Assembly (NCBI RefSeq): GCF_000025865.1
Contig: NC_014002.1
Coordinates: forward strand, 1,922,001 to 1,986,000
Length of the DNA stretch: 64,000 nt
Reading direction: 5' to 3'
Source of the DNA: Methanohalophilus mahii DSM 5219
Lineage (GTDB): Archaea; Halobacteriota; Methanosarcinia; Methanosarcinales; Methanosarcinaceae
Of the stretch, positions 54,534 through 57,650 are shown piece after piece; the stretch's first letter is position 1; each line of letters starts with the position of its first letter. The translations under genes and the position numbers were made by a program. The notes under the pieces are model-generated. The model did no database searches and was not told where the DNA came from. It worked only from the letters and a program-made list of their open reading frames with translations.

Positions 54534-55583
54534 ATGGGAACTCCAAAACATAAAGGTGAAATTTCTCTATCTATAGATGGAGAAAAGAAGATTCCTGCAC
54601 TAGATGTGGCTAATGCAATCCAGAATCTTCAAAATATCATCTACAATCTTGGTGATTATTATTTTGAAAATCCTTACCGTGAAGGCGGAGATTTCCCCCA
54701 GGACGTGAAAAAATACTGCACATTACTTTTTACTGATATTGAGATGGGTAGCGTTCATGCCGACCTCCAGATAAGTAATGAGCAGACAGCTCTTGGAGAA
54801 TGCGCAACAATCGGTGAAAGGTCTATAGTCGCTACCAGTGATCTTCTTGAAGCTCTTTCTAGAAAAGATATTTCAAAAGAAGAGTTGTACGATATTGTTA
54901 ATGACCCTCATCGAGTTAACAAGCTACTCAGAGAATTTTATGCAATGTGGCCAGATGAAAATTCCAAACGTATATTATCGATAGGATTTCAGGGCAAGTC
55001 GCAAATACAACTAAATGGCTCACGAAAGAAGATTATAAAGAAACTTTTACACAAGCCTGTTGGAGAGTATGAGAAGGAAATTTTTGGATGGATATCCGGG
55101 ATAAGTATTGGCCAGAGTAAGAAGATAACAGTTGAAAGTAACCAAGGGAAAATAAATTGCTACTTTGATCCTGAAATTAAAGATTGGGTGCAAGAGCACC
55201 TTGGGAAATTTGTAGTATTGCGTGGGACAATGAAACCAATTCATAAAGGAAATTTTGGATTGTTCATTGATAGTGAAGATTCGATAGAACAAACCTGTTA
55301 CTACACTCTTGATAATATGTCTTCTCCGGATAGAATTATGAAATTAAAGGAACAAATTCCCATTGAATTTATGTTGGAAGATGAGCTTTTCATTGGTTCC
55401 AACGATGAACTGGGTCTTTTTGCTATGAATGCAAGAATGAAAGATGTCTTTAAAGAATTAGAAGAACAATTCTTCATTTTATATCAAGAATATGTCCTCA
55501 CCGATGATGAATTATCCAAAACTGGCCAGCTGTTGAGGGGGAGACTGATTTCAATTGTGGGGGACTCTCGTGGCTTCATATAA
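54534..55583 (+). CDS. Hypothetical protein in a possible HicA-like operon
   Basis: This 349-residue soluble protein is of unknown family. An N-terminal domain contains DVANAIQNLQNIIYNLGDYYFENP and LFTDIEMGSVHADLQIS. A middle region with many beta-strand-like stretches (about residues 185-260, GKFVVLRGTMKPIHKGNFGLFIDSED) looks OB- or SH3-like, and the C terminus is helical (about 305-340). It overlaps the following HicA-like gene by 14 bases or more, so expression is coupled. Its possible role as partner or antitoxin is inferred from that overlap. Its AT content is higher than the core blocks. Confidence 0.55.
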   Translation: MGTPKHKGEISLSIDGEKKIPALDVANAIQNLQNIIYNLGDYYFENPYREGGDFPQDVKKYCTLLFTDIEMGSVHADLQISNEQTALGECATIGERSIVATSDLLEALSRKDISKEELYDIVNDPHRVNKLLREFYAMWPDENSKRILSIGFQGKSQIQLNGSRKKIIKKLLHKPVGEYEKEIFGWISGISIGQSKKITVESNQGKINCYFDPEIKDWVQEHLGKFVVLRGTMKPIHKGNFGLFIDSEDSIEQTCYYTLDNMSSPDRIMKLKEQIPIEFMLEDELFIGSNDELGLFAMNARMKDVFKELEEQFFILYQEYVLTDDELSKTGQLLRGRLISIVGDSRGFI

Positions 55584-55791
55584 AGCAAAAAAGATACAAA
55601 AAGCCTTGGCCAAAAAGGGTTTTGAAGAAAGACGTGAGGGCCATCACATAATTTATGTTTATTATCTGGATGGTAAAAAGACCGGTAATCGAACATTCAT
55701 AAGCCACGGGAGCAAAATGGAATATAATAGCAATCTTTTGAGTAAATTGAGTAAACAAGTCAACTACCCCTCCCTGCCGGAAGGGGCTTGA
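55570..55791 (+). CDS. HicA-like mRNA interferase candidate, C-terminal end altered by an insertion
   Basis: This 73-residue protein starts at GTG 55570 behind GGGGGA; a TTG at 55555 is less likely. KKIQKALAKKGFEERREGHHIIYVYYLDG and ISHGSKMEY with a following helix match the small double-stranded RNA-binding fold of HicA toxins, with the catalytic-type His in GHHIIY. The last residues (NYPSLPEGA) are encoded by the end hairpin of the neighbouring TnpB element, so its original tail is lost. It overlaps the 349-residue gene. Toxin activity is plausible, not proven. Confidence 0.6.
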   Translation: MASYKAKKIQKALAKKGFEERREGHHIIYVYYLDGKKTGNRTFISHGSKMEYNSNLLSKLSKQVNYPSLPEGA

Positions 55792-57030
55792 ATGTCAATT
55801 AAGCATTCGTCTGGGTGGCTGACAAGCACCCCTGAGATTTCAGGATATACCTGTAATCCCGTGTTTTGTGTTCAATATTCATTGCACCGATTAGGTCTGC
55901 ATTATTCGCATAATCACATTTTTCACATCTAAAAGACAATCTGTTACGGTTATTCTTAGAGATATGATTGCATCGAATACAAGTTTGAGAAGTATAGGAT
56001 GGGTCAACATAATGAGTGATTATGCCTACTTCTTTTGCTTTGTATTCAATGAATGTCTGCAATTGCCGGAAAGCCCAACTACTGTGGTTATGTCTTCTCT
56101 TTTTGGAAACTTTGGAAAGAGTGGAATCACGTATTCCTGTTAAATCTTCCAGACCTATTACCGATATACCTTTTTCAATTGCGAATTTCACAATTTCTTT
56201 TGAGATTGTATGGTTTACATCTCGCATAAGACGTTTCTCTTTACCTGAAATGTATTTCAACATTCGTTTTGCAGATAAAGTTCCCTTCGATTGTAAACGC
56301 TTTCGCATTGATTTATATTGGTTGCGAAGATTCTTAATTTCACCTCCAGCAAAAAAACTACATTTCCTATCGGTAGTGGAAGCAACAGCAAGATAGTTCA
56401 TACCTACATCTATACCCATAAATGTAGAAGCATCTGTCAATTCTTTATCAGGAATTTCTTTCCCCACACAAAGATGAAAATAATAATTTCCATCCCTTTG
56501 TTTCACAACTTTGGATGCTTGGTATTTCCATGAGCCATCAAAATACTGTTTAGCGTAGTCATAATTCAAAATGGAATATGCTTTTCTTCCGTTGATAGTA
56601 GTTATTTTGACCGTGTCTTCATCAATCACAAAATCCCTTTTGTAAGAAAAGGTCATTGAGGATGGCGAAAATTCTACTTTTTGCCATTTTACCTTTTTCT
56701 GTTTTTTTAATGTTTTGTAACACCCTGCCACCTGTCTTGGAATGTTACAACTCATCTGGGATTTCAATTTTAATGTTTCACGAAGATATGGGTAAACTTC
56801 CTGCTGTAATTTCATCGCTGATATCGGTTTACCTTTATCAAAAACGATTTCAGAAGCATAGTTCATTCCATCAGAATATTTCTTCATAGTTTCCACTAAA
56901 TCATTATCAGGATTTGCTATTTTCAAGATAACTGTTTTAGTGAGAAACATACAATAGTATGTTCACTTACTTATTATAAAAAATTACTTTTGTGAAATAT
57001 CAGGCACATTCCTCCCCTACCTCACGGAAG
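55755..57030 (-). mobile_element. IS1341-like element (TnpB only) with end hairpins
   Basis: A single tnpB gene is flanked by hairpins typical of IS200/IS605 ends. The right end (reverse strand) carries AAGCCCCTTCC and GGAGGGGTAGTTGAC around 55757-55790. The left end carries GTCCCCTTCCGTGAGGTAGGGG at 57012-57034. There is no tnpA, so the element depends on a transposase in trans. No terminal repeats or target duplication are expected for this class. The right end lies inside the HicA-like gene. Exact ends are estimates. Confidence 0.75.
55799..56950 (-). CDS. tnpB: TnpB RNA-guided nuclease, IS1341 type
   Basis: This 383-residue protein is a TnpB. RuvC residues are Asp181 (MGIDVGMN), Glu268 (VIGLEDLTGI) and Asp352 (NNADLIGAMN). 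The zinc finger is CIRC (324-327) and CEKC (342-345). All catalytic residues are kept, so the nuclease may be active. Such proteins use an RNA from the right end of the element (omega RNA) to cut DNA near a target-adjacent motif and favour element retention. The right-end hairpin lies just downstream of its stop. Confidence 0.92.
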   Translation of the reverse strand: MFLTKTVILKIANPDNDLVETMKKYSDGMNYASEIVFDKGKPISAMKLQQEVYPYLRETLKLKSQMSCNIPRQVAGCYKTLKKQKKVKWQKVEFSPSSMTFSYKRDFVIDEDTVKITTINGRKAYSILNYDYAKQYFDGSWKYQASKVVKQRDGNYYFHLCVGKEIPDKELTDASTFMGIDVGMNYLAVASTTDRKCSFFAGGEIKNLRNQYKSMRKRLQSKGTLSAKRMLKYISGKEKRLMRDVNHTISKEIVKFAIEKGISVIGLEDLTGIRDSTLSKVSKKRRHNHSSWAFRQLQTFIEYKAKEVGIITHYVDPSYTSQTCIRCNHISKNNRNRLSFRCEKCDYANNADLIGAMNIEHKTRDYRYILKSQGCLSATQTNA

Positions 57031-57095
57031 GGGACTCCTGCTTTATGAGTTGAATATTATTCAAATAAAAAAAGAAGACGGGAAAACCTTCCCCA

Positions 57096-57650
57096 TCAGT
57101 AACCTGTGGCCTGTGCAAAGGCAAACAGCAGGTTGGGATCGGAAGTGGTGCCCCTGACCTGGATTACCATGTTATCCGTATTCCAGACATAGGCATAGCG
57201 TGGTACGTCCTCCCCGCCTTCGGTCACATGCCAGATGATGCGTGTGGCGAAGTGGTCATTGAAGGAGTGCTCGGTGAACCTCTCTCCCTGTGCCATTGGA
57301 TTGAATTCGTTTTTGTAGTCGTTGACCAGGGTCCGGGCGGCATCGGTGTCAGCACATTCGATGGCACTGATCTGCACTTCCACATCATCCCCGTTTTTGT
57401 AGATACCCTGACTGGCTGCATTGATCGTATCCTCACTGCCAACACCGTCCAGCACACTTCCAGAGTCCAGTTCACGTACTCCAATCATCTCAAACCCTGC
57501 CGGCACTTCGTCAAGTGACACTGCATCTGAAACAGACCCGATTTCAGGATTATCGATTTCTTCACCTGTACCGCCTGTGTCAGTACATCCCGACACTGCA
57601 AGCATGATCATTGAAATTGCCAGAAGCAATGCTACTATTCTCATTTTCAT
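57096..57650 (-). CDS. Secreted lipoprotein, function unknown
   Basis: This 184-residue protein starts at ATG 57650, behind GGGATC; the open frame runs 31 codons further but without export signal logic. A signal peptide of about 20 residues ends in the lipobox LAVSGC (Cys near residue 20), then a Thr/Gly/Asp-rich linker leads into a domain of about 150 residues with EVQISAIECADTDAARTLVNDY and RIIWHVTEGGEDVPRYAYVWN. The acidic composition suits a salt-adapted host. It is downstream of the S-layer gene on the same strand, separated by a strong terminator. Confidence 0.75.
   Translation of the reverse strand: MKMRIVALLLAISMIMLAVSGCTDTGGTGEEIDNPEIGSVSDAVSLDEVPAGFEMIGVRELDSGSVLDGVGSEDTINAASQGIYKNGDDVEVQISAIECADTDAARTLVNDYKNEFNPMAQGERFTEHSFNDHFATRIIWHVTEGGEDVPRYAYVWNTDNMVIQVRGTTSDPNLLFAFAQATGY

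What the first reader, a model, noticed from the sequence alone, without database searches (positions are those of the whole stretch)
55570..55800. TnpB element inserted into the tail of a HicA-like gene, supplying new C-terminal codons
The last codons of the HicA-like gene (NYPSLPEGA) are made from the hairpin of the element's right end. The element thus rewrote the toxin's tail and stop codon without frameshifting it. A guide RNA from that end would share bases with the toxin mRNA's complement.
Basis: partly seen in the sequence, partly recalled or inferred. Interest (0 to 1): 0.6.

Follow-up and report, generated by a model that had tools for sequence, protein, structure and literature searches.

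The report
TnpB element truncating a HicA-like gene
A common jumping element (tnpB type) landed inside a small HicA-like toxin gene of a salt-loving methane-producing archaeon, cutting off its last 30 amino acids and putting 10 chance ones in their place; this is a clean, well-documented case of an ordinary process.

Summary
A tnpB-only IS200/IS605-type element occupies 55759-57049 (tnpB on the minus strand). The HicA-like gene (55570-55791, +) takes its last 10 codons (VNYPSLPEGA) and its stop from the element's right end. Element ends and target were fixed from other copies: every right end stops at GTTGAC, and other insertions trace to TTCAA| sites still empty in relatives. 'Rewrote the tail without frameshifting' overstates it: the gene was truncated at the end of its core fold, and any of the three frames would have given a short tail (10, 14 or 21 residues). 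Nor is it a clean insertion: 1.2-1.5 kb present in relatives between hicA and the next gene is missing on the element's left side. A TnpB guide RNA would be antisense to the last kept hicA codons; that follows from any insertion in this orientation. Published precedent exists for IS605 ends forming 3' coding sequence. Whether the 73-residue protein is active is unknown.

The parts
55570..55791 (+). HicA-like gene, GTG start, 73 codons plus TGA; residues 1-63 are native, 64-73 element-encoded
   Evidence: ORF; Pfam HicA_toxin E 2.7e-07 over residues 6-63; orthologues 86-91% identical over residues 1-65 in three congeners
55759..55791 (+). Element-derived codons VNYPSLPEGA and stop
   Evidence: Lie inside the element's right end, which ends GTTGAC in all copies; absent from relatives
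55759..57049 (-). tnpB-only IS200/IS605 (IS1341-type) element, 1,291 bp
   Evidence: Second copy at G000:C1:121076-122376, 96% identical; ends fixed by alignment of copies and by empty sites
55799..56950 (-). tnpB, 383 aa, RuvC motifs and zinc-finger cysteines present by eye
   Evidence: NCBIfam guided_TnpB 205.7 bits (cut-off 100), Pfam Cas12f1-like_TNB E 1.1e-21
55759..55900 (-). Right end / presumed guide-RNA (reRNA) scaffold with terminal hairpin
   Evidence: 95% mean identity in 10 copies, consensus fold with terminal hairpin; z-score -2.8 for this copy; no Rfam hit above threshold
55743..55758 (-). Presumed 16-nt guide, TTGTTTACTCAATTTA, antisense to the last kept hicA codons
   Evidence: Flank of the right end; inferred from ISDra2 reRNA (PMC8612924)
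57050..57054 (-). TTCAA target motif beside the left end
   Evidence: Conserved in nearly all left ends; is the target motif in empty sites of other insertions
54534..55583 (+). Upstream partner gene, 349 aa, overlaps the hicA start by 14 bases; probable antitoxin-like partner, unnamed family
   Evidence: ORF; homologues or a shared C-terminal module precede the HicA-like gene in the relatives; no Pfam hit
57055..57098 (.). Junction region where 1.2-1.5 kb found in relatives is missing

Best explanation
An IS1341-type (tnpB-only, IS200/IS605) element inserted 3' of a TTCAA site on the minus strand of a hicA-like gene, right after codon 63. Shown: its right end replaced the conserved 30-residue tail by 10 residues and a stop; the cut falls at the end of the predicted core fold (alpha-beta-beta-beta-alpha), removing two extra C-terminal helices. 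Shown: sequence beside the left end, including the rest of hicA and neighbouring genes of relatives, is missing. Inferred: the loss was a later deletion at the left end. Inferred: TnpB with a right-end guide RNA recognises TTCAA plus the hicA sequence, i.e. hicA alleles still lacking the element, and so helps keep the element there; the occupied site is spared because TTGAC replaces TTCAA. The new tail is a by-product of where the stop codons lie. The 73-residue protein keeps the whole HicA domain and may still be made.
For: Orthologues without the element and with the 30-residue tail; tail motif (Q-L-x-L-S...D-L-x-x-C-P...) in all 18 relatives aligned. Ends and target: all right ends GTTGAC; empty sites TTCAA|flank for four other copies, two of them exact clean insertions with both flanks adjacent in several species; the orthologous hicA site in relatives is TTTAA or TTTAG, one or two changes from TTCAA. 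Missing 1,165 / 1,433 / 1,516 bp against G007 / G005 / G003. Fold: helix 54-63, then helices 68-76 and 81-92 in the full-length relative, mean pLDDT 86. Core under constraint between species: dN/dS 0.08-0.18, as in the partner gene, 0.12. reRNA, TAM and donor-joint cleavage in ISDra2: PMC8612924.
Against: No strain of the same species without the element was available, so TTCAA at this exact site before insertion is inferred. The low dN/dS is between species and cannot tell whether constraint continued after truncation. No transcript data. The genome holds only a fragment of a Y1 transposase by Pfam search, so the element is probably not mobile on its own today.
Confidence: 0.9

Rival explanations
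1. Two element copies inserted separately, one in hicA and one near the 3' end of the lipoprotein-like gene, and recombination between them deleted the 1.2-1.5 kb between, leaving one hybrid copy.
For: Gives the missing segment in one step; the left flank reads ATAATATTCAA next to the element, so TTCAA could be a second target there. Copy L057 in a sister species likewise joins a left flank and a right flank that lie about 930 bp apart in three relatives, both at TTCAA.
Against: Two relatives have ATAATATCTAATC at the left junction, not TTCAA; needs two insertions plus recombination.
Confidence: 0.25
2. The truncated HicA is a selected, functional variant: losing the C-terminal helices changes its control by the upstream partner.
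For: Cut lies exactly at the end of the core; the HicA domain is intact; ORF open with no other lesion; the tail and the partner's C-terminal module co-occur in relatives.
Against: No test of expression or toxicity; the tail is near-universal in relatives, which speaks for loss of function or of partner contact; no other genome is known to keep the truncation.
Confidence: 0.15
3. hicA is now a dead or impaired gene: the tail is needed for folding, activity or partner binding and the gene is decaying after a tolerated insertion.
For: Conserved tail lost, including a near-invariant Leu and Cys; downstream region deleted too.
Against: No frameshift or premature stop in codons 1-63, and low dN/dS, though a recent event would look the same.
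Confidence: 0.4
4. The right-end RNA acts as an antisense regulator of hicA mRNA.
For: Guide and hairpin are exactly complementary to the 3' end of the hicA message; convergent genes with stops 7 bases apart.
Against: Complementarity follows from geometry; no transcript data; the arrangement is not conserved in relatives.
Confidence: 0.05

Closest known systems
IS200/IS605 family, tnpB-only (IS1341-type) elements; ISDra2 as model
   Same: tnpB with left and right terminal hairpins, insertion 3' of a short fixed motif without target duplication, right end abutting the guide-providing flank (PMC8612924)
   Different: Target motif here is TTCAA rather than TTGAT; no tnpA in the element and only a fragment in the genome
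IS605B stem-loop ends forming the last coding bases of Borrelia lipoprotein genes (PMC2775950)
   Same: An IS605-type end supplies the 3' end of a host coding sequence (8 nt there)
   Different: Here the right end of a complete tnpB element supplies 33 nt; there a left-end remnant without transposase
HicA toxins (PF07927; 14 context classes reviewed in PMC10865869)
   Same: dsRBD-like alpha-beta-beta-beta-alpha core, GHH motif, antitoxin-like gene next to it
   Different: C-terminal two-helix extension in this clade and an upstream partner that no Pfam model recognises

Membership tests
IS200/IS605 tnpB-only (IS1341-type) element | TnpB protein with RuvC and zinc-finger parts | tested here: met
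   NCBIfam guided_TnpB 205.7 bits; Pfam OrfB_IS605 and Cas12f1-like_TNB
IS200/IS605 tnpB-only (IS1341-type) element | Fixed target motif at the left end, no target duplication, empty sites show motif plus flank | tested here: met
   TTCAA|flank in relatives for four other copies of the family; for the window's own copy the orthologous site reads TTTAA or TTTAG
IS200/IS605 tnpB-only (IS1341-type) element | Subterminal hairpins at both ends | tested here: met
   Right-end hairpin folded; left-end hairpin CCCCTTCCGTGAGGTAGGGG by eye
IS200/IS605 tnpB-only (IS1341-type) element | Y1 transposase TnpA available in trans (needed for mobility, not part of the definition of tnpB-only members) | tested here: inconclusive
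   Only a 62-residue fragment in this genome; intact copies in five congeners
TnpB-associated reRNA/omegaRNA | RNA from the right end carrying flank sequence as guide | not testable with these tools
   Needs RNA sequencing; conserved right-end sequence and fold only, no covariation, no Rfam match
HicA toxin family | HicA_toxin domain above Pfam cut-off | tested here: met
   31 bits against cut-off 27
HicA toxin family | RNase/toxic activity | not testable with these tools
   Needs an expression assay
hicBA toxin-antitoxin operon | Neighbouring HicB antitoxin | tested here: inconclusive
   Upstream overlapping gene conserved with this HicA clade but no Pfam HicB hit and no PDB fold match at E<=0.001

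The most novel reading that the evidence does not exclude
TnpB elements of this genus repeatedly end up in the 3' ends of toxin-antitoxin genes and hand them new C-termini that persist (hicA here; an antitoxin-like gene in three sister species), and in hicA the truncation makes a toxin with altered control while its guide RNA polices intact hicA alleles.
Probability: 0.07. Interest if true: 0.5.

Novelty: new member of a known kind. Interest (0 to 1): 0.22.

Why it matters
It is a well-resolved natural example of how a TnpB element can truncate and re-tail a gene, with the target motif and presumed guide readable at base level. If the short HicA is active it would separate the toxin core from its conserved tail in a natural experiment. 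Otherwise it is routine insertion-sequence damage to a toxin-antitoxin locus.

Tried and rejected
Rfam search of 55300-57300: only a sub-threshold HEARO hit on the strand opposite to the presumed guide RNA, rejected as chance. Foldseek of the HicA relative and of the partner model against PDB: no match at E<=0.001. Profile search of PDB sequences with the HicA alignment: only chance-level hits. Covariation in the right end: none, copies too similar. Another site for the hicA guide in the window: none besides the insertion itself. I compared each flank with relatives separately and did not build a rejoined hicA sequence.

Full report
WHAT WAS CLAIMED.

THE GENE AND THE ELEMENT. The window lies at 1,922,001-1,986,000 of a single 2,012,424-bp contig. 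The HicA-like ORF runs 55570-55791 on the plus strand and scores above the Pfam cut-off for HicA_toxin over residues 6-63. It meets tnpB (55799-56950, minus) head-on, with 7 bases between the two stops. The tnpB product is a guided-TnpB-family protein. A second copy of the element, 96% identical, lies at 121,076-122,376.

EXACT ENDS. I collected left and right ends of the element's copies in the genomes of the genus. All listed right ends finish ...GTTGAC and then diverge; nearly all left ends begin after TTCAA. Empty sites settle which bases belong to the host: copies L052 and L053 are clean insertions whose two flanks are adjacent in several species, reading TTCAA|flank; copies L057 and L051 have right flanks that in relatives are also preceded by TTCAA (in one relative of L051 shifted by a base, in another not). 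So in the window the right end finishes with the C opposite base 55759, and the element is 55759-57049. The host codon before it is CAA (Q63). The codons GTC AAC TAC CCC TCC CTG CCG GAA GGG GCT and the stop TGA are element sequence: ten codons, not nine.

THE ORIGINAL TAIL. Three congeners (G003, G005, G007) carry the uninterrupted gene in the same position; after ...SKQ or ...GKQ they read LNLSKEQLCDLIDCP(L/M)TKEQLQQIY(I/S)QKE(G/R). Eighteen relatives from the order share this C-terminal module, with a near-invariant Leu and Cys, and only the window protein lacks it. Thus 93 residues became 73: 30 lost, 10 gained. AlphaFold on a full-length relative (mean pLDDT 86) puts the last helix of the core at 54-63 and two further helices at 68-76 and 81-92. 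The break falls at the core's end. Read in the three possible frames, the right end gives tails of 10, 14 or 21 residues, so a short in-frame tail is what any insertion in this orientation would give.

NOT A CLEAN INSERTION. [quoted passage not shown] Between these points G007, G005 and G003 have 1,165, 1,433 and 1,516 bp that the window lacks, holding the hicA tail and, by eye, small toxin-antitoxin genes. The junction at the left end (ATAATAT|TCAA) shares two bases with the expected hicA sequence next to TTCAA, compatible with a small-homology deletion after insertion; recombination between two element copies is the main rival. Copy L057 in G005 shows the same pattern, a 930-bp loss on the left side ending at TTCAA, whereas L052 and L053 do not.

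HOW IT PROBABLY WORKS. By analogy with ISDra2 (PMC8612924), TnpB would carry a right-end RNA whose last 16 or so bases come from the flank, here TTGTTTACTCAATTTA, antisense to the last kept hicA codons. With TTCAA as recognition motif the complex would cut hicA alleles lacking the element and leave the occupied site alone, since TTGAC precedes the guide match there. The right-end sequence is conserved among copies with a stable terminal hairpin, but no covariation could be seen. TnpA is represented in this genome only by a fragment, while five congeners have intact copies. All of this paragraph's mechanism is inferred, not shown.

IS THE SHORT HICA ACTIVE? The core is intact, and between-species dN/dS over codons 1-63 is 0.08-0.18, like the partner gene. 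This cannot tell whether constraint continued after the truncation. I give a dead or impaired gene about 40% and a selected variant about 15%, the rest being undecided neutral persistence.

SECOND CASE. In G001, G003 and G005 another right end lies in the tail of an antitoxin-like gene (Pfam DUF7557, just under cut-off), so that it now reads ...DEM-STTPP... where the target motif would have given ...DEI-stop (inferred). TTCAA read from the other strand is T-TGA-A, so this motif can sit on a stop codon. With the Borrelia precedent of an IS605 end forming the last bases of a lipoprotein gene (PMC2775950), tail supply by such ends is a known, recurrent by-product.

VERDICT.

Noticed in passing
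54534-55583 and loci L011-L030: The HicA-like clade with the two-helix C-terminal extension is preceded by a gene whose length varies (about 120-390 aa) but whose last 70 or so residues form a shared module; no Pfam hit for the window's family. It looks like an unnamed antitoxin family.
   Followed up: partly
L055, L068, L074 (G003, G001, G005): The right end of a related element lies at the presumed stop codon of an antitoxin-like gene (DUF7557-like) in three species and replaces its stop with codons STTPP...; the target motif TTCAA is T-TGA-A on the gene's strand.
   Followed up: partly
L057 (G005:C2:1066755-1068057): A copy whose left and right flanks lie about 930 bp apart in three relatives; like the window's copy it has lost DNA on the left side, here ending at TTCAA.
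   Followed up: partly
G000:C1:1769073-1770636: Another tnpB-family gene sits between sequences that are adjacent in relatives, next to the site used by copy L052 in G004: two different elements near the same spot.
   Followed up: no
L031, L032, L033 (G003, G007, G005) between hicA and the lipoprotein-like gene: The segment missing in the window holds different small toxin-antitoxin genes in different species (MazEF-like by eye in G003 and G005, RelE-like by eye in G007): a variable toxin-antitoxin spot.
   Followed up: no
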